Shown here: in pieces, positions 43,981-57,623 of the stretch | Layout: every line of letters starts with the position of its first letter | Numbering within the stretch: the stretch's first letter is position 1 | Assembly: GCF_901827185.1 (NCBI RefSeq) | Contig: NZ_LR594673.1 | Location: forward strand, 372,001 to 436,000 | Reading direction: 5' to 3' | Length of the DNA stretch: 64,000 bases | From: Variovorax sp. PBL-E5 | GTDB lineage: Bacteria > Pseudomonadota > Gammaproteobacteria > Burkholderiales > Burkholderiaceae_C | Made by a program: the position numbers and the translations under genes | The notes under the pieces: model-generated | Seen by the model: only the letters and a program-made list of their open reading frames with translations | What the model was told of the DNA's origin: nothing | The model's database searches: none

Positions 43981-45588
43981 ATGGCCCGTCCGTCCTTGCC
44001 ATCGTCCATCACGCCCCAGGCGCTTCACGGCCTGCTGCTGGACGACCAGGAACTCGCCCTTCTCGACGTGCGCGAGGCACGCGCGTATGTGGGCGGCCAT
44101 CTGAACCTCGCGCGGCTCGCCCCGCTCTCCTGCCTGCCGCTCGACGTGCGCGCGCTGGTGCCGCGTCTCGGCACGCCGGTGGTGCTCGTCGATGCCGGCG
44201 ACCCGCACGGCCCGGCGCCGCGTGCGGCAAAGCTGCTGGCCCGGCTCGGCTACACCGATGTGCGCACGCTGGCCGGCGGCACGGTCGCCTGGCAGGCGGC
44301 GGGCTTTGCGCTGATCGACGGCTATGGCACGCTCGTCAAGGCATTCGGAGGCCAGGTGCTGGCCCACCATGCGACGCCCACCTGGCAGGGCGATGCATTG
44401 CGGGCGCACCGGACGGCCGGTACGCCGGTGACCCTGATCGACGCGCGGCCCGCAGACGAATATGCGTTCCTGTCGCTTCCAGGCGCCGGCAATCACCCGG
44501 GCTGCGAACTCGCGCTGCGCCAATGGCCCGTCGATGCGCAAGCCGGCCCCTGGGTCGTCCACTGCTTCAGCCGCACGCGCGGCATCATCGGCAGCACCAG
44601 CTTGCGCCTGCTCGGTCATCCCGATGTGCACTTCCTCGAGGACGGCGTCATGCAGTGGGCGCTCGAAGGCGCGCCCGTCTTGCAGGACGCTTTGCCGGCT
44701 GTCGATCTGCCTGCAGCGTCCGATGAAGCCCTTCGCCGCCGGGCCGACGACCTGATCGCGCGCCACGACCTGCCGCTGCTGCACCCGGACCTGCTCTTGC
44801 GCCGGCAGGCCGAGGCCGACAGGACGCTCTACCTTTTCGATCTGCGGCCGGGCGCCGTCGTCGACGGCACCCCGCCCGGTGTGGGCGCCGTTGCCGGTGG
44901 CCAGTTGCTCATGCACTTCGAGAACCTGATCGGCACTCGCGGCGCGCGCATCGTGCTGCTGGATGAACCGCATCGCCTTCGCGCAGCCGTCACTGCCTTC
45001 TGGCTGCTGCAATTGAACCAGGCCGAGGTGTTCATCCTGGACGGCGAATTGCCCGCTTCGTGGATCGCAGGGCGCGACAGCGGCGAAGACCTGACGGCAT
45101 CCGCCGGCGAAGGGCTCTCGCCAGCCCAACTGGCCGCGCTGTTGCGTTCCGCGCCGGCGCGCATCCGCGTGATCGACGTCGGTCCGAGCGCCGATTTCGA
45201 GCGCGCACACCTTCCAGGCGCGGACTACCTGTTGCCCTACACGCTCGAGCCGGTCGCCGCACTGCAACGGCCCGGCCTCGCCATCGTCTTCACTTCGCCC
45301 GACGGCCGGGCCGCCCGGTGGGTCACGGCCGAGGTCCGCGAACGCTGGCCCGACTGCCATGCCGAGTGGCTTCAGGGCGGCACCGATGCATGGCGGGCCG
45401 CCGGGCGGCCGACCGAGCAGGTTTGGGAACCCGCCCAACGCCTCACGCCCTTCGAGGACGACTGGGGTTCGGTGATGCGGGTGCCGGCCTCGCATCGCGA
45501 CCGCGCATGGACCGACTACCTCGTGTGGGAGCGCGGCCTGAGCGCACGCGTGGTGCGCGATCCCACGGTGCGCTTTCGGCTCTTCTGA
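43981..45588 (+). CDS. four-domain rhodanese-like sulfurtransferase
   Basis: 535 residues with four rhodanese-like modules, recognised by repeated LLDVREARAYVGGHL, LIDARPADEYAFLSLPGA, LFDLRPGAVVDGTPPGVG and VIDVGPSADFERAHLPGADY. Only module 2 keeps an active-site cysteine (VVHCFSRTRGIIGS); modules 1, 3 and 4 have VLVDAGDPHG, VLLDEPHRLR and VFTSPDGRAA instead. It should carry a persulfide on one Cys, the other modules being structural or docking. It shares a promoter element with the gene at 46625 and lies near the encapsulin locus, suggesting a role in sulfur trafficking. Confidence 0.85.
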   Translation: MARPSLPSSITPQALHGLLLDDQELALLDVREARAYVGGHLNLARLAPLSCLPLDVRALVPRLGTPVVLVDAGDPHGPAPRAAKLLARLGYTDVRTLAGGTVAWQAAGFALIDGYGTLVKAFGGQVLAHHATPTWQGDALRAHRTAGTPVTLIDARPADEYAFLSLPGAGNHPGCELALRQWPVDAQAGPWVVHCFSRTRGIIGSTSLRLLGHPDVHFLEDGVMQWALEGAPVLQDALPAVDLPAASDEALRRRADDLIARHDLPLLHPDLLLRRQAEADRTLYLFDLRPGAVVDGTPPGVGAVAGGQLLMHFENLIGTRGARIVLLDEPHRLRAAVTAFWLLQLNQAEVFILDGELPASWIAGRDSGEDLTASAGEGLSPAQLAALLRSAPARIRVIDVGPSADFERAHLPGADYLLPYTLEPVAALQRPGLAIVFTSPDGRAARWVTAEVRERWPDCHAEWLQGGTDAWRAAGRPTEQVWEPAQRLTPFEDDWGSVMRVPASHRDRAWTDYLVWERGLSARVVRDPTVRFRLF

Positions 45589-45619: not shown

Positions 45620-46083
45620 TCAGGCCTGCGCCGGCGCGTGCGGCTCGCCCAGTGACAGCATCAACCGGTTGGCCCAGTTGAAGAAGGCCGCGCCATGGAT
45701 CACGTCGGCGATCGCGAGATCGTCGAGGCCCACGGCGAGAAATGCGAGGCGAAGCGCGCATGCACCGACGCGCAATAGATGCAGCCGTTGTAGCGCGAGG
45801 TCGCTGCGGCCGAGAGTTCACGCTCGGCACGCGGCAGGCCGGCATCGGGGTTGTAGAAGATGTCCTTGTCGGTGCGAGTGCGCGCGCCGAGGATGTCGGG
45901 GTCACGCGCGAGAAGCATGAAGTACGGCGACTTGGCGCGCGACGCGTCGACCAGGCCCGTCCGATGGCGCTCCGTCAGCTCGGACTCGGGCAGCGGCTCG
46001 AGCCAGGGCAGCCAGTCGAGCACCGCCTGGGTGAACGCGTCGGGCGGGACGTTGTCGGGATGCGAGAGGGTTGGATGGCTCAT
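45620..46083 (-). pseudogene. AhpD/peroxidase-related protein (Avi_7169-like), internal deletion and frameshift
   Basis: The N-terminal ~116 residues are intact (FTQAVLDWLPWLEPLPESEL, LPRAERELSAAATSRYNGCI, then YCASVHARFASHF with the CxxC-type site). The frame then changes: the C-terminus VGLDDLAIADVIHGAAFFNW, ANRLMLSLGEPHAPAQA continues in another frame. About 40 codons are missing at the join near 45730. The encoded enzyme is a carboxymuconolactone decarboxylase-like peroxidase that normally accompanies flavin monooxygenases; here it is dead. Confidence 0.75.
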
Positions 46084-46095
46084 GAGGTGACCCGA

Positions 46096-46578
46096 TCAGG
46101 CAGTGACGGAAGATGCAGGGCGGGCCGCGAGCGCACGCAGGCCGGCGACCACGCGGATCTGGAAGGACAGGAAGGCCACCAGCTGCGACAGCGTGACGAT
46201 GTCGGTGGTGGACCAGCCCGCATCAAGCAGCGCCTGCAGGTCCGCGGCCTTCGCGTCGCGCGGATGCAGCACCAGCAGGTGGGCATGCACCAGCGCGGCC
46301 GACAGCCGCGCACCGAGCACGGCACGGTGCGCGTCGCCAATCGCATGAACAGGTCCGGGCGCGTCCTCGATGCTCAACGGGCCCACGGGAAAGCGGCCGT
46401 ACGGACCGTGTGCAGCGGCTTGCGCGGCTTCGGCAGCGACTGCTTCGAGCAGGCGGGTCGGGCCGTTCGCGCGCGCCAGGCCGCGGGCGTAGAAGGCAGC
46501 GAACTCGGCCTGCCCGTGCAGGCCGGCCACGAAGACTTCGGTTTTCGCATGAGCACATGCCGAAAGCTTCGTGGTCAA
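46096..46578 (-). pseudogene. CMD-domain protein (Avi_7170-like), N-terminally truncated
   Basis: Homology-like sequence starts only at VFVAGLHGQAEFAAFYARGL and runs to the end (ALLDAGWSTTDIVTLSQLVA, FLSFQIRVVAGLRAL). The first ~55-60 residues expected for the family are missing, and the reading frame upstream runs into the promoter of the divergent reductase, with only a TTG as start. It looks like an N-terminal deletion whose join lies near 46545, right beside the shared 15-mer. It pairs with the broken AhpD-like gene downstream. Confidence 0.65.
46546..46560. promoter_or_regulatory. 15-mer promoter element, copy 2 (upstream of ketopantoate reductase)
   Basis: Identical CGCATGAGCACATGC as at 43917-43931, 65 bases before the reductase ATG, followed by the same order of short blocks. 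It sits at the apparent deletion junction of the truncated CMD gene. Confidence 0.55.
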
Positions 46579-47590: not shown

Positions 47591-49432
47591 TCAACCCGCG
47601 CGGCGCTGCCCCGCGAGCCGGCGCACCACCGCCACCAGCCGGTCGATCTCGTCGAAGGTGTTGTAGAAGGCCAGCGACGGCCGCACCGTCGTCTCGACGC
47701 CGAAGCGGCGCAGGATCGGTTGCGCGCAATGGTGTCCGGTGCGCACCGCGATGCCTTCGTCGTTGAGTGCGTGGCCCACTTCCTCGGTGCTGTAGCCGTC
47801 GAGAACGAAGGACATCACGCTGGCCTTGTCGGCGGCGGTACCGATCAGCCGCACGCCTTGGACCGCGCCCAGTTGCTGCATGCCGTAGACCAGCAGCTCG
47901 TGCTCGTAGCGCGCGATGGTCTCGATGCCGATCTGGTTCACGTAGTCGATCGCGGCACCGAGGCCCACCGCGTCGGCGATGTTGCCGGTGCCGGCTTCGA
48001 ACTTGTTCGGGATCGGCTGGAACACCGTCTTCTCGAAAGTGACATCGGCGATCATGTTGCCGCCGCCCTGCCAGGGCGGCATGTCCTCCAGCACTTCGCG
48101 CTTGCCCCAGACCACGCCGATGCCGGTCGGTCCGAACACCTTGTGGCCGGAGAACACGAAAAAGTCGGCGCCGATGTCCTGCACGTCGACCCGCATGTGC
48201 GAGACCGACTGCGCGCCGTCGACCAACGCCCGAGCGCCGGCGCGGTGTGCGAGCGCGACGATCTCCTTCACCGGCACCACCGTGCCGAGGGCGTTCGAGA
48301 CCTGCGTGACGGCGACGATCTTCGTGCGGTCGTTCAGCAGCTTGCGGTACTCGTCGAGCAGCACCTGGCCCGAATCGTCGACCGGGATCACGCGCAGCGT
48401 CGCGCCCCTGGCCGAGGCGAGCTGCTGCCAGGGCACGATGTTGGCGTGATGCTCGAGATGCGAGACGATGATCTCGTCGCCCTCGCCCACGTGCTGGCCG
48501 CCCCAGCTCTTGGCGACCAGGTTGATCGCCTCGGTGGTGCCGCGCACGAAGATCACCTCGTTCACGTCGGGCGCGTTGAGAAACAAGCGCACGCGTTCGC
48601 GCGCGCCCTCGTAGGCATCGGTGGCGCGCGCGGCGAGTTCGTGCGCGGCGCGGTGGATGTTCGAGTTCTCGTGTTCGTAGAAGTACGAGACGCGGTCGAT
48701 CACCGGCTGCGGCTTGTGGGTGGTGGCGGCGTTGTCGAACCAGACCAGCGACCGACCGTTCACACGCTCCTGCAGGATCGGGAAATCGCGCCGCACGGCA
48801 TGCACGTCGAAGGGCTGCCGCTGGCCTGCGGTGGCCACCGGCACGTCGCCATGCGGTGATGGCTTGGCGGGCGTGACGTAGCCGCTGGTCAATCGCACCG
48901 AGTCGACGAAGTAGTACTGCGGCTCGGTCGAAGGCGCAAGGTCCGGGGCCTGTTCGGGCGGCTTCGTCAGCAGGCGCCGGACATCGCCGCCTTCGGGCTG
49001 CGCGAAGGGATAGCTCGCAAACCCGTCGTGCACGCCGAGCACCGCGTCACCGAGCCGCGGCTCGTGCGCAGGCAAGGCGCTCTGCAGCGAGTCAGGCACG
49101 CCATTGCCTGCCACCGCATGCGGCAGCAGGGATGGGGCCCGGTTGCCGATCGACAGCACCTGGGTCGGCGACGCGGGAATGAGATTGGCGCCCGGCACCT
49201 GTCCTTGCGGGATCGGCGTGCCCGGCACGCTGGGGCCGAAGCCGGCCGGGCTCACCAGCGGCGAGCCGGGCGGCGCCAACTGCGAAGGCGCCTGCACGCC
49301 GGGCGGCAGGGCCTGGCCCGGCAGCGCGGCGAAAAGCTGGCTCGCCATGCGCGCGAGCACGACCGGGTCGAACGGCGCCTCGGCCTGCTGCGGGATCGAC
49401 GGCAGGCCAGGTGGAGAAAGAGACGTGCTCAC
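47591..49432 (-). CDS. family 2A encapsulin cargo: cysteine desulfurase with disordered N-terminal targeting domain
   Basis: 613 residues from the GTG at 49432. Residues 1 to ~207 are low-complexity, Pro/Ala/Gly-rich, with one likely helix (FDPVVLARMASQLFAALPG at 21-39) and a closing YYFVDSVRLTSGY. A SufS-type desulfurase follows (FDVHAVRRDFPILQ, WFDNAATTHKP). PLP lysine is Lys431 (SGHKVFGPTG) and persulfide cysteine Cys569 (RTGHHCAQPIL). It converts cysteine to alanine and enzyme-bound sulfane sulfur. The long disordered domain is the known cargo-loading feature of desulfurases housed in SrpI-type shells. It lies 10 bases after the shell gene. No strong ribosome site precedes the GTG; an ATG at 49486 inside the shell gene is possible. 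Confidence 0.93.
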   Translation of the reverse strand: MSTSLSPPGLPSIPQQAEAPFDPVVLARMASQLFAALPGQALPPGVQAPSQLAPPGSPLVSPAGFGPSVPGTPIPQGQVPGANLIPASPTQVLSIGNRAPSLLPHAVAGNGVPDSLQSALPAHEPRLGDAVLGVHDGFASYPFAQPEGGDVRRLLTKPPEQAPDLAPSTEPQYYFVDSVRLTSGYVTPAKPSPHGDVPVATAGQRQPFDVHAVRRDFPILQERVNGRSLVWFDNAATTHKPQPVIDRVSYFYEHENSNIHRAAHELAARATDAYEGARERVRLFLNAPDVNEVIFVRGTTEAINLVAKSWGGQHVGEGDEIIVSHLEHHANIVPWQQLASARGATLRVIPVDDSGQVLLDEYRKLLNDRTKIVAVTQVSNALGTVVPVKEIVALAHRAGARALVDGAQSVSHMRVDVQDIGADFFVFSGHKVFGPTGIGVVWGKREVLEDMPPWQGGGNMIADVTFEKTVFQPIPNKFEAGTGNIADAVGLGAAIDYVNQIGIETIARYEHELLVYGMQQLGAVQGVRLIGTAADKASVMSFVLDGYSTEEVGHALNDEGIAVRTGHHCAQPILRRFGVETTVRPSLAFYNTFDEIDRLVAVVRRLAGQRRAG

Positions 49433-49442
49433 GCTCGGCGTC

Positions 49443-50375
49443 TTACTTGTAGGTGTCGGGGTAGTCGTGGTACTTGCCGATCTCGACATCGTCGAGCACG
49501 GCCAGCGCATCCGGCGTCAGGACCGCCAGCGAGCAATACAGCGAAATCAGGTAGGAGGCGATCGCGTGGTTGTTGATTCCCATGAAGCGCACCGACAGCC
49601 CCGGGCTCTGTTCACCGGTCAGGCCCGGCTGGAACAGGCCGACCACGCCCTGGCGCTTGTCGCCCACGCGCAGCAGCAGGATCTTGCTCTTGCCATCGGC
49701 CAGCGGCACCTTGTTGGACGGGATCAGCGGGATGCCGCGCCAGGTGATGAACTGCGAGCCGAACAGGCTCACGGTGGGCGGCGGCACACCGCGGCGGGTG
49801 GCTTCGCGGCCGAAGGCAGCGATGGCCAGCGGATGGGTGAGGAAGAACGCGGGCTCTTTCCAGACCTTGGTCAGGAGTTCGTCGAGATCGTCCGGCGTCG
49901 GCGCGCCGGTCAGCGGGAAGATGCGCTGCTCGTCCGTCACCTGCGACAGCAGGCCGTAGTCCGGATTGTTGATGAGCTCGCTTTCCTGGTTCTCCTTGAT
50001 CGTCTCGATCGTGAGGCGCAATTGCTCCTTGATCTGGTCGTGCGGACTGCTGTAGAGGTCGGAGATGCGCGTATGCACGTCCAGCACGGTGCTCACGGCG
50101 TTGAGGAAATACTCGCGCGGCTGCTCCTCGTAGTCGACCCAGGTGCGCGGCAACTGGTTCTCGCTTTCGCGCGCGGTGCACGTGACCTGGATCGACTCCG
50201 GATTCTTCACCTTGTTGAGGCGGTAGATGCCGGCCTCCACGGGCACCCACTGCAGCAGGTGCGTCAACCAGCGTGGACTGATGGTTTCGAGCTGGGGAAC
50301 CGTCTTGGTGGCATTGGCTAGCTGGCGCGCGGCGCTGTCGCCGAGGGCGTGCGTTCCGCCGACTGTGGCTGTCAT
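49443..50375 (-). CDS. srpI: family 2A encapsulin shell protein (SrpI-like)
   Basis: 310 residues, the SrpI family size. Key stretches: ARQLANATKTVPQLETISPR, WLTHLLQWVPVEAGIYRLNK, SLFGSQFITWRGIPLIPSNK, LRVGDKRQGVVGLFQPGLTG and the end DALAVLDDVEIGKYHDYPDT. The fold is HK97-like with an N-arm; many copies self-assemble into a nanocompartment. Published SrpI-type shells enclose cysteine desulfurase and respond to sulfur limitation. Here it is followed directly by that cargo and preceded by XRE and serine acetyltransferase genes. No signal peptide: cytosolic. Confidence 0.96.
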   Translation of the reverse strand: MTATVGGTHALGDSAARQLANATKTVPQLETISPRWLTHLLQWVPVEAGIYRLNKVKNPESIQVTCTARESENQLPRTWVDYEEQPREYFLNAVSTVLDVHTRISDLYSSPHDQIKEQLRLTIETIKENQESELINNPDYGLLSQVTDEQRIFPLTGAPTPDDLDELLTKVWKEPAFFLTHPLAIAAFGREATRRGVPPPTVSLFGSQFITWRGIPLIPSNKVPLADGKSKILLLRVGDKRQGVVGLFQPGLTGEQSPGLSVRFMGINNHAIASYLISLYCSLAVLTPDALAVLDDVEIGKYHDYPDTYK

Positions 50376-50439
50376 GAGGGGAGACTCCGTGGTTCGGGAA
50401 GAGGGACTGCGGGAAGTGTCGAAGGCTTCGGGTTTCCCC

Positions 50440-50709
50440 TCAACGGGCTATAGCCGCCAAGTTGATGAGCTGGCCGGCACGCCGCTCGGCAAGCTGCTCG
50501 CAGTGCGCGAGCAGCGCGGCCACGTCGAGCTGCAGCGCGAGCGCGAGCTTCTCGGCCGTGACGATCGAGGCGATGACGCGCCCGCGCTCGATCTCGCCGA
50601 CGTAGGAACGATCGAGGTCCGAGCGTTCGGCCAACTGGCCCTGCGACCAGCCGTTGCGCACGCGCAGCTGGCGCACTGCCACGCCGAAGCATTCCACCAG
50701 TCCCGTCAT
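50440..50709 (-). CDS. small XRE-family DNA-binding protein inside the encapsulin operon
   Basis: 89 residues. Helix-turn-helix VRQLRVRNGWSQGQLAERSD, LDRSYVGEIERGR and then ASIVTAEKLALALQLDVAAL are Cro/CI-type. It overlaps the serine acetyltransferase stop by one base and lies 64 bp before the shell gene. A likely local regulator of the sulfur operon, possibly autoregulatory; no obvious operator was identified. Confidence 0.88.
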   Translation of the reverse strand: MTGLVECFGVAVRQLRVRNGWSQGQLAERSDLDRSYVGEIERGRVIASIVTAEKLALALQLDVAALLAHCEQLAERRAGQLINLAAIAR

Positions 50710-51641
50710 CACTGCGCAGCCGCCGACAGCACCTCGCCGGACGCCGCCGCGTTCTGCACGCCGGCCTGCGTGACGCTGGCGCCGGGCGGCACATCGGCCG
50801 TCAGCCAGACGTTGCCGCCGATGACCGCGCCGCGGCCGATCGTGACGCGGCCCAGGATCGTGGCGCCGGCATAGATCACCACCTCGTCCTCGACGACCGG
50901 ATGGCGCGGCAGGCCTTTCTGAAGCAGGCCGTGGCCGTCGACGGGGAAGCGCTTGGCACCGAGCGTCACGGCCTGGTAGATCCGCACGCGCTGGCCGATG
51001 ACCGCGGTCTCGCCGATCACGACGCCCGTGCCATGGTCGATGAAGAAGCCACGGCCGATCTGCGCGCCGGGGTGGATGTCGATGCCGGTCTGCCCGTGGG
51101 CCAGCTCGGCCACGATGCGCGCGAGCAGCGGCAACTGCAATCGATAGAGCCGGTGCGCAAGCCGGTGGTAGATCATGGCCAGCACGCCCGGATAGCACAA
51201 CAGCACCTCGTCGACGCTGTGCGCGGCCGGGTCGCCCTGGTAGGCCGCGACGACGTCGCTGTCGAGCAGCCGGCGAATGCCCGGCAAGGCTGCGCCGAAA
51301 GCGCGCACGGCCTCGCGCGCCTCGGCATCGATCTCTGCCGCCGGGCGCGGCGCATGCCGTGCCACGTAGTGAAGTTCCAGCCGCGCCTGCGCCAGCAGCG
51401 CATGCAAGGCAGCGTCCAGCGTGTGCGCGACATAGAAGTCCTCGCTGTCCTGGCGCAGATCGAAGGGGCCGAGGCGCATCGGAAAGAGCACGCCCTTGAG
51501 TTGCTCGGCCACGCCGGCCAATGCCTCGCGTGACGGAAACTCCCGGCCCGCGGGCTCGCGCTGGCGCTTCTGCGCCTCGCGCCATTCATTGCGCACACCG
51601 CGCAGCTCGCCGACCCACTGGCCGACGTCGAATCCGCTCAT
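50709..51641 (-). CDS. epsC: serine O-acetyltransferase (EpsC-type)
   Basis: 310 residues. C-terminal left-handed beta-helix hexapeptides: TGIDIHPGAQIGRGFFIDHG, TGVVIGETAVIGQRVRIYQ, TLGAKRFPVDG and RHPVVEDEVVIYAGATILG. The N-terminal helical domain has YHRLAHRLYRL. It acetylates serine with acetyl-CoA to O-acetylserine, the precursor of cysteine. In an operon with a cysteine desulfurase cargo it would supply the cysteine consumed by the compartment. Confidence 0.94.
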   Translation of the reverse strand: MSGFDVGQWVGELRGVRNEWREAQKRQREPAGREFPSREALAGVAEQLKGVLFPMRLGPFDLRQDSEDFYVAHTLDAALHALLAQARLELHYVARHAPRPAAEIDAEAREAVRAFGAALPGIRRLLDSDVVAAYQGDPAAHSVDEVLLCYPGVLAMIYHRLAHRLYRLQLPLLARIVAELAHGQTGIDIHPGAQIGRGFFIDHGTGVVIGETAVIGQRVRIYQAVTLGAKRFPVDGHGLLQKGLPRHPVVEDEVVIYAGATILGRVTIGRGAVIGGNVWLTADVPPGASVTQAGVQNAAASGEVLSAAAQ

Positions 51642-51712
51642 GATTTTTCCTCCTTGATGCGGCGTGCCCGGGCGCGCGCTCTTCTCGTTTTTTTCGTGGT
51701 GCGCGTCCCGCG

Positions 51713-52192
51713 TCAGTCCTGAACCCAGGGCAGCTGGTGGAAGCGCCAACCGTCGGCGGCACCACGATGCTGCGCGGCATCGATCTCGCCTTCGAAACCT
51801 TCCAGCACGTTGAAGACATGGCTGAAGCCGGCCTTGGTCGCCGCTTCGGCCGCAAGCGCCGAACGCTTGCCGCTGCGGCACAGCAGCAGCACCACCGCGT
51901 CCTTGCCACCGTCCCTGGCCAGCCTGGCTTCCAGTTCGCGCACGAAGCGGGGGTTGCGCGTGAGCGCCGTGCCCGTGGCCCACGGCACGTGCAGGCTGTC
52001 GGGCACATGGCCCACGAACTTGCGCTCTTCGCCCGAGCGCACGTCGACCAGAACCGCTTCGCGCTGTTGGACGAGCTGCCACGCGACCGGAGGCGCGACA
52101 CCGCCGGCATAGGGCAGATGCTGTTGCGCCGCTGCGGCTTGTGCCTGCTCCAGCGCTCGCGGGAGTGCGAGGGTCTCGACGTCAGATGACAT
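51713..52192 (-). CDS. single-domain rhodanese sulfurtransferase
   Basis: 159 residues. The rhodanese loop LLCRSGKRSALAAEAATKAG holds the catalytic cysteine; LVDVRSGEERKFVGHVPDSL precedes it. It could accept sulfane sulfur from the desulfurase or pass it on. First gene of the rhodanese-epsC-XRE-srpI-desulfurase series, 71 bp before epsC. Rhodaneses and EpsC recur at SrpI-type loci. Confidence 0.92.
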   Translation of the reverse strand: MSSDVETLALPRALEQAQAAAAQQHLPYAGGVAPPVAWQLVQQREAVLVDVRSGEERKFVGHVPDSLHVPWATGTALTRNPRFVRELEARLARDGGKDAVVLLLCRSGKRSALAAEAATKAGFSHVFNVLEGFEGEIDAAQHRGAADGWRFHQLPWVQD

Positions 52193-52274
52193 GAAAGAAA
52201 TGCTCCGTGGTTTGAGGGATTGCCCATCTCGCCCTGATGGCGATAGCCCACTTTAGGCCGGACGACGGCCAGCA

Positions 52275-52286
52275 CCAACGACCGAT
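52275..52286 (-). promoter_or_regulatory. ATCGGTC box upstream of the encapsulin operon
   Basis: On the minus strand: TTGACTTATCGGTCGTTGG, 83 bases before the rhodanese ATG. ATCGGTC-N-TTGG-N-G also occurs at 55125-55136 before the LLM monooxygenase gene. A shared sulfur-limitation promoter or activator site is possible; CysB-type control is a guess from the gene types. Confidence 0.4.
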
Positions 52287-52328
52287 AAGTCAATTCCTAA
52301 CAACCATTTGATCTATGCGCCGGGCACG

Positions 52329-53213
52329 TCAGGAAGCCGGCCAGAACACCAGCGCACGCAGTTCGATGCTGCGCCGCGGCGGCGCCTCGGGCGAGGTGTC
52401 CGGATGAACGAAGGCGCTGTGCGCCGTCAGCCGCGCCGTGCCGTCCGCGCGCGAGTCGTAGATCTTCAGCAGCAGCGGCTCGTCGCTGCGCAGGCGCGGA
52501 AACCAGTACCAGCGGTGCTCGGGGTTGTGCAGGAACGAGCAGGTCTCGCCGACCTTGTCGGGGTAGACCAGGTCGCTGGGCACGAGATCCCCGGGCGCGA
52601 TGGAGCGCGCATCGCACATCGCCAGCGGCAGCTGCTCCACGGTCGCCAGCGGCCGCCAGAGGTTGATGATCGCGAAGCGATGCTTCAGCCGGTCGGCCGC
52701 CTCCCCGGGCGGCAGATGGTCGCGCACGCGGCGCGGGGCCGAGACGAAGGTCTGGTCGTTGTGCACGCGTCGCACCGGCTCCCGCAGCGTCTTCGTGGCG
52801 CGCGAGCCCTTCGCGCTGTCGCGCAGGGTGTGATCGAACACGACGACCTTCTCGGCCCCCGTGGCGGCACGCAGCAGCTGCGCCGATTCGGCGTAGTACA
52901 CATCGCGGATGGCCGCGTCGTCGGAGAAGTCGCTCAGGGCGCTGCGATGGGAGAGCTGCGCGAAGCCGCTGCGGTCGAGCGACAGTTCGCCCAACGCAGC
53001 CAGTGCGCGGCCATCGTGGATCATCACCCACTCGGGCGCCAGCTCGCCGGTGTTCCACGGCACGCCGGCGGGTGGCTCGAAGGTGTAGCTCACCGGGCGA
53101 CTCACGCCCGGCGCCAGGTAATTGAGCTCCGCCATCACGGCCGAGACGTTCGCGGCCCCGGGCCACGCATTCAACGTACCCGGTGCGTTCGATGAAATCG
53201 CAAGGGCGCCCAT
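52329..53213 (-). CDS. CmcJ/NvfI family oxidoreductase
   Basis: 294 residues. VSAVMAELNYLAPGVSRPVS, VFDHTLRDSAKGSR, PVRRVHNDQTFVSAPRRVRD, FAIINLWRPL and HRWYWFPRLRSDEPLLLKIY are hallmarks of the CmcJ/asaB/GA4-desaturase-like family, related to Fe(II)/2-oxoglutarate oxygenases. The substrate is unknown. It lies 10 bases after the sulfhydrylase stop with AAGGAAGAG before its ATG, so they are one operon, suggesting it acts on a sulfur-containing amino acid or analogue. Confidence 0.8.
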   Translation of the reverse strand: MGALAISSNAPGTLNAWPGAANVSAVMAELNYLAPGVSRPVSYTFEPPAGVPWNTGELAPEWVMIHDGRALAALGELSLDRSGFAQLSHRSALSDFSDDAAIRDVYYAESAQLLRAATGAEKVVVFDHTLRDSAKGSRATKTLREPVRRVHNDQTFVSAPRRVRDHLPPGEAADRLKHRFAIINLWRPLATVEQLPLAMCDARSIAPGDLVPSDLVYPDKVGETCSFLHNPEHRWYWFPRLRSDEPLLLKIYDSRADGTARLTAHSAFVHPDTSPEAPPRRSIELRALVFWPAS

Positions 53214-53223
53214 GTCTCTTCCT

Positions 53224-54507
53224 TCATGCGGCCGCAAGTGCCTGATCGAGATCGGCCAGCAGATCGTCGATGTGCTCGATGCCGACCGACAGGCGCACCG
53301 TGTCCTCGGTCACGCCCGCACGCGCGAGTTCGTCCGGCGACAGCTGCCGATGCGTGGTCGAGGCCGGGTGCGTGGCCAGCGAGCGCACGTCGCCGATGTT
53401 GACCAGGCGCGTGAACAGCTTCAGCGCATCGAGGAACTTCGCGCCGCCCTCGCGGCCGCTGCCGATGCCGAAGGTCAGCACGCCGCTGGCCTTGCCGCCG
53501 AGGTACTTCTGCGCCAGCGCATGGTCGGGGTGGTCTTCGAGCGCCGCGTAGTTGACCCACTTCACGGCCTCGCTCTTCTTCAGGTGCCGCGCCACCGCCA
53601 GCGCGTTGCTGCTGATGCGGTCCACGCGCAGCGCCAGCGTCTCGATGCCCTGCAGGATCAGGAAGGCATTGAACGGTGAAATGGCCGCACCCGTGTTGCG
53701 CAACGGCACGACACGCGCACGGCCGATGTAGGCGGCCGGGCCCAGCGCCTCGGTGTAGACCACGCCGTGGTAACTCACGTCGGGTTCATTCAGGCGCCGG
53801 AAGCGCTGCCTGTGTTCGGCCCACGGAAACTTGCCAGAGTCGACGATCGCGCCGCCGATGCTGGTGCCATGGCCGCCGAGGTACTTGGTGAGCGAATGCA
53901 CGACGATGTCCGCGCCGTGCTCGATCGGCCGGCTGAGATAGGGCGACGGCACCGTGTTGTCGACGATCAGCGGCACGCCATGGCGGTGTGCGATCTCGGC
54001 AATGGCTGCAATGTCGGTGATGTTGCCGGCCGGGTTGCCGAGCGATTCGACGAACACCGCCTTGGTCTTCGCATCGATCAGCGGCTCGAAGCTCTGCGGG
54101 GCTCGGTGGTCGGCGAAGCGCGTGGTGATGCCGAACTGCGGCAGCGTGTGCGCGAACAGGTTGTAGGTGCCGCCGTAGAGCGCGGTGCTGCTGACGATGT
54201 TGTCGCCCGCCTCGGCGATGGTCTGGATCGCATAGGTCACGGCCGCCTGGCCCGAGGCGAGCGCGAGTGCGGCGATACCGCCTTCGAGCGCCGCCACGCG
54301 CTGCTCCAGCACATCCTGCGTCGGGTTGTTGATGCGGGTGTAGATGTTGCCCGGCACCTTCAGGTCGAACAGATCCGCACCATGCTGCGCGCTGTCGAAG
54401 GCATAGGCCACCGTCTGGTAGATCGGCGGCGCGACGGCGCGCGTGGTGGGCTCGGGCGAATAGCCGGCATGGACCGACAGGGTTTCGAATTTCCAGTTGT
54501 TCGACAT
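53224..54507 (-). CDS. metY: O-acetylhomocysteine aminocarboxypropyltransferase (O-acetylhomoserine sulfhydrylase)
   Basis: 427 residues, Cys/Met metabolism PLP family. [51 protein letters not shown]; the PLP lysine is in [20 protein letters not shown]. The length matches MetY rather than MetZ/MetB (~390). It makes homocysteine from O-acetylhomoserine and sulfide, a direct sulfur-assimilation step to methionine. Confidence 0.93.
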
Positions 54508-54743: not shown

Positions 54744-54863
54744 TCAAGGGGCACCCGCCGCGAGAGCGTCGAGCACCTTGATCTTCTTGGGAATGAGCTT
54801 GAGTTCGAAGAAAGTGTCGGCGATCTTCTGCTGCTCGGCTGCCACGGCGGGCGTGACCGGCTT
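54744..54863 (-). pseudogene. C-terminal fragment of an SsuA-type sulfonate-binding protein
   Basis: The last ~39 codons of a periplasmic aliphatic sulfonate-binding protein: VKPVTPAVAAEQQKIADTFF, ELKLIPKKIKVLDAL. Nothing of the preceding ~280 residues is present; upstream the frame abuts a 37-codon ORF in a different frame. It is a deletion scar of a sulfonate ABC transporter operon. Confidence 0.7.
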
Positions 54864-54976
54864 CACAGCGCAACGGCACCTACGACCACCGCGCCGAGCG
54901 CGAGGTCGCGCAGGGCCTGCCAGAAGGATCGGCCCGGCGGATCGGGATCGAAGTGATCGGTGAGAAAGGGAGACAT
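54863..54976 (-). CDS. short ORF with a C-terminal hydrophobic segment, probably truncated
   Basis: 37 codons: MSPFLTDHFDPDPPGRSFWQ, ALRDLALGAVVVGAVAL, then a stop exactly at the join to the SsuA fragment. It looks like the N-terminus of a membrane protein cut at its first transmembrane segment. Divergent from the LLM gene. Not confidently functional. Confidence 0.35.
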   Translation of the reverse strand: MSPFLTDHFDPDPPGRSFWQALRDLALGAVVVGAVAL

Positions 54977-55124
54977 CGGGGATTCCGGGAGGGTCAAGGA
55001 AACGGGGCGCACTGCGCCGACCCGGCGGATTCTGCGGACACACCGCCCGGCAGCCAACGAAGGAATACGAGTTTGCTGATGCGTTTTGCGTTGGATCCGA
55101 GGCCGCTGCATAAGCATCGAAGCA

Positions 55125-55169: not shown

Positions 55170-56519
55170 ATGTCCTCGACCCGCCAACTCAAGCTGGGCG
55201 CCTTCATGCGCCCCGTCAGCATCCACACCGGCGCCTGGCGCTATCCCGGTGCCTTCGCCGACGCCAACTTCAACTTCGCGCACCTCAAGCGCTTCGCGCA
55301 GACGCTGGAGCGCGCGCGCTTCGACGCCTTCTTCATGGCCGATCACCTCGCGGTGCTCAACATGCCGATCGAGGCATTGAAGCGCAGCCACACCGTCAGT
55401 TCCTTCGAGCCCTTCACGCTGCTGTCGGCCCTGAGCCAGGCCACCGAACACATCGGGCTGGTCGCGACGGCATCGACCACCTTCGACGAACCCTTCCACA
55501 TCGCACGGCGCTTCGCCTCGCTCGACCACCTCAGCCATGGCCGCGCGGGCTGGAACATCGTGACCACCTCCAACCCCGACGCGGCGCTCAACTTCGGCCG
55601 CGAGGACCACATGCCGCACGACGAGCGCTACGCCCGCGCACGCGAGTTCTACGATGTGGTCACCGGACTGTGGGACAGCTGGGCCGACGATGCCTTCGTT
55701 CGCGATGCCGGCAGCGGCCTCTATTTCGATCCGACGAAACTGCATGTGCTCGACCACAAGGGCAGCTACCTCTCGGTGCGCGGCCCGCTGCACATCGCAC
55801 GGCCGGTGCAGGGCTGGCCCGTGATCGTGCAGGCCGGCGCATCCGAGCCGGGGCGCCAGCTGGCCGCCGAGACGGCCGAAGTGATCTTCGCCGCGCATGG
55901 AACCCTGGCCGAAGGCCAGCGCTTCTATGCCGACGTGAAGGGACGCCTCGCCGCACTCGGGCGTGAGCGCGACCATCTGAAGATCCTGCCGGCGGCCTTC
56001 GTCGTGGTCGGCGACACGGTGGAAGAAGCGCAGGCCATTCGCGCCCGGCTCGACAGTCTGGTGCACTACGAGAGCGCGATCGCGTCGCTGTCCATCGCAC
56101 TGGGCCATGACGCATCGCGCTTCGATCCCGACAAGCCCTTGCCCGAAGTGCCCGAAACCAACGCCAGCAAGAGCAGCCGCGAGCGCGTGATCGCGCTGGC
56201 GCGGCGCGAAGGCTTCACCGTGCGGCAGCTCGCGCAGCGCCTCGGCGGCTACGGCGGACTGGCCTTCGTCGGCACCGCACGGACCATCGCCGACGAGATG
56301 CAGGAATGGCTAGCCACCGAAGGCTCGGACGGCTTCAACATCATGTTCCCGTGGCTGCCCGGCGGGCTCGATGCCTTCGCCGACAAGGTGGTGCCCGAGC
56401 TGCAGCGGCGCGGCATCTTCCGGCGCGAGTACGAAGGCGCGACGCTGCGCGAGAACCTCGGCCTCTCGCGGCCGGCCAACCGGTTCTTCCCGCCGCGCTC
56501 AGATCATTCCCTTATTTGA
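55170..56519 (+). CDS. LLM flavin-dependent monooxygenase (NtaA/SnaA/DszA family)
   Basis: 449 residues. Blocks: LKLGAFMRPVSIHTGAWRYP, FMADHLAVLNMPIEALKRSH, TTFDEPFHIARRFASLDHLS, GRAGWNIVTTSNPDAALNFG, VIVQAGASEPGRQLAAETAE and FNIMFPWLPGG match the NtaA/DszA/SnaA class of FMNH2-using monooxygenases. They oxidise sulfones, dimethyl sulfide/sulfone-type compounds or NTA with reduced flavin from a separate reductase, which is not in the window. The sulfur-rich neighbourhood argues for an organosulfur substrate. Confidence 0.92.
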   Translation: MSSTRQLKLGAFMRPVSIHTGAWRYPGAFADANFNFAHLKRFAQTLERARFDAFFMADHLAVLNMPIEALKRSHTVSSFEPFTLLSALSQATEHIGLVATASTTFDEPFHIARRFASLDHLSHGRAGWNIVTTSNPDAALNFGREDHMPHDERYARAREFYDVVTGLWDSWADDAFVRDAGSGLYFDPTKLHVLDHKGSYLSVRGPLHIARPVQGWPVIVQAGASEPGRQLAAETAEVIFAAHGTLAEGQRFYADVKGRLAALGRERDHLKILPAAFVVVGDTVEEAQAIRARLDSLVHYESAIASLSIALGHDASRFDPDKPLPEVPETNASKSSRERVIALARREGFTVRQLAQRLGGYGGLAFVGTARTIADEMQEWLATEGSDGFNIMFPWLPGGLDAFADKVVPELQRRGIFRREYEGATLRENLGLSRPANRFFPPRSDHSLI

Positions 56520-56609
56520 AAGCAACGATTCGGTAGTTCGCAATTCAAGAGCCCGCTCGCAGAATCGGTTGCCGAGTGCCGACTGGCACTGCTTTCTCGT
56601 TTGGGCTCC

Positions 56610-57623
56610 ATGAATTTCCAACAGTTGCGCTCCGTGCGCGAAGCCGTTCGATGCGGCTTCAACCTCACCGAAGCCGCGCATGCGCTGCACACTTCGCAGC
56701 CGGGCGTCAGCCGGCAGATCCGCGAGCTCGAAGACGAACTCGGCATCGCGCTGTTCGCGCGCGCCGGCAAGCGGCTGACAGGCCTGACGGCGCCGGGCGA
56801 TCACCTGCTGCCGATCATCGAACGCGTGCTGCTCGAAAGCCGCAACCTGCGCCAGGCCGGGCAGGAGTTCCTGGCCCAGGAGAACGGGCTGCTCTCCATC
56901 GCCGCGACGCACTCGCAGGCACGCTACGCGCTGCCGATCGCCGTGCAGGAATTCCGCACCCGGTTTCCGCATGTGCAGCTGCACCTGCGCCAGGGCTCGC
57001 CCAAGCAGATCGCCCAGATGCTGCTCGACGGCGAGGCCGATGTCGGCATCGCCACCGAAGCGCTCGGCGACTATCCGCAGCTCGTGGCGCTGCCCTGCTT
57101 TCGCTGGACCCATTCGGTGATCGCGCCGCCGGGCCATCCCCTGCTCGACGGACCGCTGACGATCGAGCGGCTCGCCGGTTATCCGCTCGTCACCTACGAC
57201 AGCGGCTTCACCGGACGCACGCGCATCGACCAGGCCTTTGCCGAAGCCGGCCTCCAGCCCGACCTGGCCATCACCGCGATGGACGCCGACGTCATCAAGA
57301 CCTATGTCGAGCTCGGCATGGGCGTGGGGATCGTCGCCGGCATCGCCTTCGAAGCGGAGCGCGACACCCGGCTGCGCGCCGTCGATGCGGGGCAGCTCTT
57401 CGGCATCAACCTGACGAAGCTGGCCGTGCGGCGCGGCGCCTATCTGCGCGCGTACGTCTACGCCTTCATCGAAGCCTTCGCGCCGACCCTGACACGCCCG
57501 GCCGTGGAAGAAGCGCTCGGCGGCGGCGCTGCCGAGGCGAGCGATCCGCTCCCCGACTCGGCGCTGGCCCAGCTGCTCGCGCACGCGCCGAACGCTGGCG
57601 GCGCGTCCGCTGCCCGGCACTGA
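56610..57623 (+). CDS. CysB-like LysR family regulator
   Basis: 337 residues. N-terminus MNFQQLRSVREAVRCGFNLT, LHTSQPGVSRQIRELEDELG and KRLTGLTAPG are diagnostic of the CysB/Cbl/SsuR subgroup, which senses O-acetylserine or adenosine phosphosulfate and activates sulfur-starvation genes. Start at ATG 56610 (a TTG 9 bases earlier is less likely). It lies 90 bp after the LLM gene and 107 bp before the TauD-like gene, and is a plausible master regulator of both. Confidence 0.92.
   Translation: MNFQQLRSVREAVRCGFNLTEAAHALHTSQPGVSRQIRELEDELGIALFARAGKRLTGLTAPGDHLLPIIERVLLESRNLRQAGQEFLAQENGLLSIAATHSQARYALPIAVQEFRTRFPHVQLHLRQGSPKQIAQMLLDGEADVGIATEALGDYPQLVALPCFRWTHSVIAPPGHPLLDGPLTIERLAGYPLVTYDSGFTGRTRIDQAFAEAGLQPDLAITAMDADVIKTYVELGMGVGIVAGIAFEAERDTRLRAVDAGQLFGINLTKLAVRRGAYLRAYVYAFIEAFAPTLTRPAVEEALGGGAAEASDPLPDSALAQLLAHAPNAGGASAARH

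What the first reader, a model, noticed from the sequence alone, without database searches (positions are those of the whole stretch)
47591..52192. Complete family 2A encapsulin sulfur compartment operon
Five genes in one direction encode a rhodanese, EpsC serine acetyltransferase, a small XRE regulator, an SrpI-like shell and a cysteine desulfurase with a ~207-residue disordered N-terminal cargo domain. Together they can make O-acetylserine for cysteine, strip its sulfur inside a protein shell, and pass or store the sulfane sulfur. The shell/cargo pair is established knowledge; the exact operon composition and physiology in this organism are inference.
Basis: partly seen in the sequence, partly recalled or inferred. 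Interest (0 to 1): 0.92.

Follow-up and report, generated by a model that had tools for sequence, protein, structure and literature searches.

The report
Regulated encapsulin sulfur-compartment operon
This is a typical bacterial gene set for a protein shell that handles sulfur from cysteine; the shell itself is known, but the sequence also shows what look like its two control switches, one for sulfur shortage and one tied to a small regulator gene inside the operon.

Summary
Five minus-strand genes (52192 to 47591) encode a rhodanese, an EpsC-type serine O-acetyltransferase (SAT), an XRE regulator, a family 2A encapsulin shell and its cargo cysteine desulfurase. Shell and cargo pass NCBIfam's family 2A cut-offs; the closest solved shell is 8t6r. 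The compartment is a new member of a known kind, and SAT and rhodanese are published as its commonest partners. The sequence adds a control layer that I did not find in print. (1) A motif in the rhodanese promoter also lies before sulfate-binding protein, SsuA, SsuE, TauD, MetQ and CysB genes, and before sbp in the host's chromosome, so the operon probably belongs to the sulfur-acquisition regulon. (2) XRE is a true component: 77 of 80 loci fetched by XRE carry the shell. A DNA element before the shell, with a palindrome, a promoter-like pair and a protected rare codon, is in 115 of 115 XRE+ and 0 of 18 XRE- loci; a variant lies in many XRE+ rhodanese promoters. (3) Shell plus cargo is detachable: 50 of 101 Variovorax genomes have the shell, and three loci show its deletion. 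The shell structure prediction failed; physiology and regulation remain inference.

The parts
51713..52192 (-). Rhodanese (159 aa), first gene; CRSGKR active-site loop (motif recalled)
   Evidence: Pfam PF00581 51.6 bits, cut-off 22.2; found in 51 of 55 family loci
50709..51641 (-). EpsC-type serine O-acetyltransferase (310 aa)
   Evidence: NF041874 EpsC 164.8 bits, cut-off 150; below the CysE cut-off (172.5, cut-off 210.65)
50440..50709 (-). Small XRE-family regulator (89 aa), start overlaps the SAT stop by one base
   Evidence: PF01381 HTH_3 49.5 bits, cut-off 23; 77 of 80 loci fetched by XRE alone carry the shell in the flank
49443..50375 (-). Family 2A encapsulin shell protein, SrpI-like (310 aa)
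   Evidence: NF041162 529.6 bits, cut-off 380; PF19307 339 bits, cut-off 22.8; 8t6r 562.5 bits
47591..49432 (-). Cargo cysteine desulfurase (613 aa, GTG start); residues 1-206 low-confidence/disordered, desulfurase domain after that
   Evidence: NF041166 931.6 bits, cut-off 800; SufS-type domain; model
52273..52314 (-). Sulfur-regulon-type motif in the rhodanese promoter
   Evidence: 42-column PWM score 24.5 (built from sites of this kind, so not independent); motif found by EM in 50 of 51 promoters, the window's included
52239..52248 (-). Predicted XRE site 1: GGCTATCGCC, directly downstream of the CCTAAAGTG -10-like box
   Evidence: 1 mismatch to GGCTATAGCC
50440..50460 (-). Predicted XRE site 2: TTGGCGGCTATAGCCCGTTGA, overlapping the XRE stop codon, 64 nt before the shell start
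50415..50443 (-). Predicted internal promoter for shell and cargo: TTGAGG (50443-50438), 17 bp, GACACT (50420-50415)
53224..54507 (-). MetY-type O-acetylhomoserine/O-acetylserine sulfhydrylase, recurrent neighbour, not a core part
   Evidence: TIGR01326 647.1 bits, cut-off 495.1; on the operon's strand nearby in 8 of 55 family loci at 82% identity or more; in the flank of 19 of 80 named loci at 60% or more
56610..57623 (+). CysB-family LysR regulator with the same motif in front (56501-56542, + strand); candidate activator
   Evidence: NF009327 455.4 bits, cut-off 402; motif score 23.5

Best explanation
This is a family 2A encapsulin system. The shell protein assembles a closed shell, and the disordered N-terminus of the desulfurase, helped by a short helix (residues 23-35), pulls the enzyme inside. 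There it strips sulfur from cysteine; the sulfur is most likely held inside as a store. SAT makes O-acetylserine so that cysteine can be formed, and the rhodanese handles sulfane sulfur outside. The whole operon is read from a rhodanese promoter that belongs to the sulfur-acquisition (CysB-type) regulon. The XRE protein most likely binds GGCTAT(A/C)GCC-type sites at that promoter and just before an internal promoter that serves only shell and cargo, and so sets how much compartment is made relative to SAT and rhodanese. Shown by sequence: gene identities, conserved order, conserved catalytic residues, both DNA motifs and their distribution. Inferred: assembly, packaging, sulfur storage, CysB as activator, promoter activity, XRE binding and its sign.
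For: Family identity. Conserved order. Cargo motifs and active site. Cargo model: residues 1-206 below pLDDT 50 except residue 24, with a helix at 23-35. Sulfur motif: EM log-likelihood 565 against 92-106 for five mononucleotide-shuffled sets; besides 50 own promoters, 47 further sites above 13, where 60 column-permuted matrices give a mean of 1.8 sites in all; 26 of the 47 lie before sulfur-labelled ORFs (see the limits of the label set in the Against line); 70 of 73 named rhodanese promoters against 1 of 365 control stretches (ten of those genomes were probably also in training); in front of sbp in the own chromosome. XRE: 77 of 80 loci. XRE-linked element: 115 of 115 XRE+ against 0 of 18 XRE- loci (105 distinct XRE+), with GACACT 17 or 18 bp after TTGANN in 73 of 105. 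Of Ile codons among the last five of XRE, 96 of 100 are the rare ATA, against 9 of 462 in the XRE body and 107 of 8167 in shell/CyD/SAT (ten duplicate loci included). In 18 of 105 the element ends 17 nt or more beyond the gene's stop. A longer form of the site is within 5 mismatches in 66 of 107 XRE+ rhodanese promoters, 2 of 15 XRE- and 12 of 610 controls.
Against: No expression, binding or particle data exist for this organism in what I searched. The shell model failed (pLDDT 32.1). Low pLDDT of the cargo N-terminus is weak evidence, because the alignment was shallow; two parts of the catalytic domain (243-269, 454-483) were also below 50. The reference proteins for the sulfur labels other than the operon genes and MetY were themselves picked from ORFs behind the motif, so 26 of 47 is not an independent rate: 6 are a serine hydrolase not known to be a sulfur gene and 3 are the operon's own shell or SAT; 7 sites precede other ORFs and 14 precede none. 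The own-genome consensus search gave 6 hits against 4 for the reversed control, so only one further hit (sbp) is convincing. The XRE-site patterns and the list of -10 variants were chosen after seeing the data. The pre-shell element overlaps the XRE stop, so co-loss with XRE is partly physical; the rhodanese-promoter site is the better test, and there 41 of 107 XRE+ loci have no close match. Loci are related, not independent. SAT is not specific to the compartment: 48 of 51 shell-less Variovorax genomes have one.
Confidence: 0.72

Rival explanations
1. Relay rather than store: the encapsulated desulfurase delivers persulfide sulfur through the shell to the operon's rhodanese for cofactor synthesis, with no elemental store.
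For: Rhodanese found in 51 of 55 family loci; PMC8346489 proposes that a rhodanese may take sulfur at the shell exterior (passage read).
Against: A paper titled as showing elemental sulfur storage in a widespread bacterial compartment exists (Benisch et al. 2024; seen only as a reference entry); PMC12407261 cites sulfur storage for desulfurase cargo (passage read); L082-L084 have SAT, shell and CyD without a rhodanese hit.
Confidence: 0.25
2. The conserved element before the shell is only a constitutive promoter, and its link to XRE is just physical adjacency; XRE acts elsewhere or not at all on the operon.
For: The element ends at the XRE stop in 85 of 105 distinct loci, so losing XRE removes it; the TTGANN-17/18-GACACT spacing is promoter-like.
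Against: A variant of the palindrome also lies in the rhodanese promoter about 1.8 kb away in XRE+ but rarely in XRE- loci; XRE presence needs at least 7 changes on the operon tree, with 8 separate XRE- clades among 52 loci, some nodes weakly supported; a perfect palindrome beside a -35-like box suits a regulator.
Confidence: 0.25
3. The motif in the rhodanese promoter is read by a regulator other than a CysB/SsuR-type protein.
For: No binding data; no published CysB site for these bacteria was found to compare with.
Against: The motif lies before CysB-family genes, including the one in the window, and before sbp, ssu, tau and metQ genes.
Confidence: 0.2

Closest known systems
Synechococcus elongatus SrpI/CyD family 2A encapsulin (6x8m, 6x8t; PMC8049743, passages read)
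   Same: Shell family (480 bits to 6x8m), desulfurase cargo with disordered N-terminal domain and two motifs, link to sulfur starvation
   Different: Here SAT, rhodanese and an XRE are in the operon, with a motif shared with proteobacterial sulfur-acquisition genes and an internal promoter-like element; the cyanobacterial operon itself was not examined here
Shell of PDB entry 8t6r, 'Major membrane protein I' (Acinetobacter, sulfur storage study; organism and link recalled)
   Same: Closest solved shell, 562.5 bits over residues 9-310
   Different: Its operon was not compared here
Family 2A desulfurase operons of the PMC8346489 survey (passages read)
   Same: 1281 operons; SAT and rhodanese named as the most enriched accessories
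   Different: 'Xre' and 'helix-turn-helix' have no occurrence in its main text; its supplements were not read
Shell-less SAT-XRE loci of Variovorax (L124, L127, L158)
   Same: Same SAT and XRE in the same order; rhodanese hit in L124 and L127
   Different: Shell and cargo deleted with different endpoints; rhodanese frame broken in L124 by ORF inspection and no hit in L158

Membership tests
Family 2A encapsulin | Shell scores above the curated family 2A model | tested here: met
   NF041162 529.6 bits, cut-off 380
Family 2A encapsulin | No cNMP-binding domain in the shell (2A rather than 2B) | tested here: met
   Only PF19307 found in 310 aa. The 2B model also passes its cut-off (414.6 bits, cut-off 400) but scores lower and best matches only residues 62-300
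Family 2A encapsulin | HK97 fold | tested here: inconclusive
   Own model failed, pLDDT 32.1; fold implied by 463-562 bits to solved family 2A shells
Family 2A encapsulin | Adjacent desulfurase with long N-terminal cargo domain and counterparts of the two known motifs | tested here: met
   NF041166 931.6 bits, cut-off 800; motifs
Family 2A encapsulin | N-terminal cargo domain disordered | tested here: met
   Residues 1-206 below pLDDT 50 except residue 24, helix at 23-35; shallow alignment, so weak by itself
Family 2A encapsulin | Shell assembly and cargo packaging | not testable with these tools
   Needs expression and electron microscopy
SufS-type cysteine desulfurase | PLP Lys and catalytic Cys | tested here: met
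   SGHK and R[TS]GHHCAQP; invariant K431 and C569 in 28 sequences
EpsC-type serine O-acetyltransferase | Score over the family cut-off | tested here: met
   164.8 bits, cut-off 150
Sulfur-acquisition (CysB-type) regulon | Promoter motif shared with sulfur-acquisition genes | tested here: met
   own sbp
Sulfur-acquisition (CysB-type) regulon | CysB binding and induction by sulfur limitation | not testable with these tools
   Needs binding and expression experiments

The most novel reading that the evidence does not exclude
Betaproteobacterial family 2A encapsulins are under two-level control. A sulfur-starvation promoter serves the whole operon, and a dedicated XRE protein, encoded between SAT and shell, acts through a palindromic operator written into its own 3' end to govern a separate promoter for shell plus cargo and, through a second site, the rhodanese promoter. 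The amount of compartment can thus be tuned apart from O-acetylserine supply, and shell plus cargo is gained and lost as a module while the acetyltransferase stays.
Probability: 0.55. Interest if true: 0.65.

Novelty: new member of a known kind. Interest (0 to 1): 0.5.

Why it matters
How the sulfur encapsulins of proteobacteria are switched on is, as far as my searches go, not in print (no paper in the held library with encapsulin plus CysB, Variovorax or 'XRE family'; that library lacks most subscription papers). The motif and the XRE element give exact DNA targets and a clear prediction about the shell-to-SAT ratio. Shell-bearing and shell-less species of one genus make a natural comparison for what the compartment is worth to its host.

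Tried and rejected
Shell structure prediction (A2, 28 close sequences) failed, pLDDT 32.1, so no fold search was run. The strict IUPAC consensus of the sulfur motif was too blunt for a genome scan (6 hits, 4 in the control); of the other hits, the ORF lists around L088 and L092 showed nothing of sulfur by eye, and L090 and L091 were not inspected. Plasmid search: 13 records, none covering 80% of the query, so no claim of plasmid transfer. The idea that SAT is dedicated to the compartment was rejected. Of the two other own-genome matches to the XRE-site core, the one in L204 falls at the end of an ORF and the one in L205 outside the listed ORFs; both were left as probable chance. Benisch et al. 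2024 could not be read and was seen only as a reference entry. Papers on CysB/SsuR binding sites were sought without a usable hit (listings only).
Full report
1. Observation. The window carries, on the minus strand, rhodanese 52192-51713, SAT 51641-50709, XRE 50709-50440, shell 50375-49443 and desulfurase 49432-47591. Pfam and NCBIfam place them as PF00581, EpsC (NF041874), HTH_3, SrpI-like/encap_f2a (NF041162) and f2_encap_cargo1 (NF041166), each over its curated cut-off; the family 2B shell model is passed too, with a lower score. The best solved homologue of the shell is 8t6r (562.5 bits, residues 9-310), followed by 9ksl, 8wol and SrpI 6x8m. The desulfurase domain aligns with a solved cysteine desulfurase from residue 203 on, and with SufS enzymes.

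2. Host. The window lies at 372001-436000 of contig C3 (553,014 bases) of a 7.09 Mb, four-contig genome. The genus is Variovorax by inference: same-genus genome G215 has a contig of 1,385,280 bases, the length of the Variovorax sp. IB41 record (L100).

3. Distribution. In the family sample 56 of 299 genomes, the own one included, have the shell, and in the genus 50 of 101. In 55 extended loci the order RHO-SAT-(XRE)-shell-CyD is kept: SAT in 55, RHO in 51 (partial in one), XRE in 37, shell in 55 (split into two frames in one), CyD in 54; some misses are contig ends. MetY lies on the operon's strand nearby in 8 of 55 and in the flank of 19 of 80 named loci.

4. Cargo. GHHC and SGHK are present in all rows that cover them, 48 and 50 of 51. 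The N-terminal motifs are conserved with variation. In the AlphaFold2 model residues 1-206 are below pLDDT 50 except residue 24, with one helix at 23-35 that coincides with the LARMASQLFA motif; the catalytic domain is mostly above 50, many blocks at 70-94, with low stretches at 243-269 and 454-483. The alignment was shallow; the shell model from a similar alignment failed.

5. Sulfur motif. EM on 51 rhodanese upstream regions gave tGCgcATAAggAAgCGcGtTTTcATTCGTT, present in 50 of 51, log-likelihood 565 against 92-106 for five mononucleotide-shuffled sets, in XRE+ and XRE- loci alike. Scanning 56 loci with a 42-column matrix built from 48 sites, threshold 13, gave 50 own-promoter sites and 47 others. 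Of the 47, 26 lie before sulfur-labelled ORFs, 7 before other ORFs and 14 before no ORF of at least 150 aa. Sixty column-permuted matrices gave on average 1.8 sites in all (at most 6) and 0.25 before labelled genes. The 26 are sulfate-binding protein 7, serine hydrolase 6, CysB 3, MetQ 2, shell 2, and TauD, SsuE, SsuA, SfnB, a 3-MST-like rhodanese and SAT one each. The reference proteins of all non-operon labels except MetY were picked from ORFs behind the motif, so this share is not independent; leaving out the serine hydrolase, the rhodanese and the operon's own genes, 16 sites remain before genes of recognised sulfur families. The non-operon labels (serine hydrolase included) cover 65 of 1021 ORFs of that size. 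Identities were checked by family scans on one or two examples each: sulfate-binding protein, MetQ, TauD, SsuE, SsuA-type, DszC/SfnB-type (several below the cut-offs of their models), LysR. In named loci 70 of 73 rhodanese promoters score above 13, against 1 of 365 control stretches; ten of these genomes, judged by equal contig length, were probably also in training. In the own genome the motif (score 27.8) stands before an sbp gene on C1, in a cluster with an SsuE-like gene and an orphan SAT 77.5% identical to the operon's. In the window it also stands before the CysB-family gene (score 23.5) and before what reads as a remnant of a sulfonate-binding protein gene (19.9).

6. XRE. A genome scan with an XRE alignment found 315 stretches, of which the best 80 were kept; by record title they are betaproteobacteria or unclassified MAGs, apart from one record labelled Pantoea. 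77 of the 80 carry the shell in the flank, in 75 of them 20-250 bp behind the XRE stop. The three others (L124, L127, L158; Variovorax) have lost shell and cargo by deletions with different endpoints when compared with L117 and L123; the rhodanese frame is broken in L124 by ORF inspection, and no rhodanese hit was found in L158.

7. XRE-linked element. In the XRE-to-shell gaps (59 non-redundant of 75) EM found CCnGACACTGnCnG, score 320 against 36-44 shuffled. GACACT is present in 81 of 115 XRE+ loci and 0 of 18 XRE-. Upstream of it lies TTGGCGGCTATAGCCnGTTGA, with at most 5 mismatches in 20 positions in 115 of 115 XRE+ loci; the best match in the 18 XRE- loci has 9-12 mismatches. Of 399 random stretches 5 had 0-3 mismatches, probably by hitting the real element, and the rest 6-12. 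After removing identical shells: 105 XRE+ loci, element ending at the stop codon in 85, 1-16 nt past it in 2 and 17 nt or more past it in 18; GACACT 17 or 18 bp after TTGANN in 73 of 105, with look-alike hexamers (listed by me after seeing the data) at the same spacing in at least 27 more. Of Ile codons among the last five of XRE, 96 of 100 are ATA, against 9 of 462 in the rest of XRE and 107 of 8167 in shell, CyD and SAT, which points to selection on DNA. A related site lies behind the -10-like box of the rhodanese promoter: the 10-bp core within 2 mismatches in 55 of 107 XRE+ and 2 of 15 XRE-, a longer form within 5 mismatches in 66 of 107 XRE+, 2 of 15 XRE- and 12 of 610 controls. The window's own copy has 1 mismatch to the core. 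XRE presence needs at least 7 changes on the operon tree (52 loci), shuffled mean 14.5, and the XRE- loci form 8 clades. Loss of the pre-shell element with XRE is partly physical; the rhodanese-promoter site is the fairer test and is weaker.

8. Module. SAT of this type is in 98 of 101 Variovorax genomes at E <= 1e-110: 48 of 51 shell-less genomes have one copy; of the 50 with shell, 26 have only the operon copy, 23 have both, and in one the copy lies on another contig. On a SAT tree the own orphan SAT falls in a clade of 25 (support 0.965), whose 14 printed members are Variovorax operon or ex-operon loci, and the window's in a different clade of 6 (support 0.997).

9. Mechanism and verdict. 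See Best explanation. The compartment is known in kind; PMC8049743 (passages read) shows packaging by the N-terminal domain and roughly sevenfold higher activity inside the shell, and PMC8346489 (passages read) names SAT and rhodanese as the most enriched accessories. The regulatory anatomy is the addition. No literature on it was found in the held library, which lacks most subscription papers.

Noticed in passing
43981-45588 (+): A 535-aa multi-rhodanese protein lies 2 kb beyond the end of the desulfurase gene, on the opposite strand; proteins 34-37% identical occur near three of the 55 related operons.
   Followed up: partly
54744-54976 (-): Apparent remnant of a sulfonate-binding protein gene: a promoter with the sulfur motif (55052-55093), a short start, then only a C-terminal-like tail (read by eye).
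   Followed up: partly
45700-46083 (-) and 46096-46578 (-): Avi_7169/Avi_7170-type peroxidase-like gene pair; the first stops at about position 110 of a 185-position model.
   Followed up: no
52329-53237 (-): CmcJ/NvfI-family oxidoreductase between MetY and the operon; found near only 2 of 80 named operons.
   Followed up: no
55170-56519 (+): NtaA/DmoA-type FMN monooxygenase beside the CysB-family gene, suggesting organosulfur use.
   Followed up: no
L065, L067 (before the shell): Two relatives carry the sulfur motif itself directly before the shell gene (scores 16.6 and 14.2).
   Followed up: partly
L085 (genome G003) and L022/L051 (genome G039): Shell gene split between two frames in one relative and carrying one TAG in another: apparent decay.
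   Followed up: no
L173:3240-3818 and relatives: A PF06821 serine hydrolase gene often sits behind the sulfur motif (6 motif sites) and in the own genome lies beside a sulfate-binding protein gene; its link to sulfur is unexplained.
   Followed up: partly
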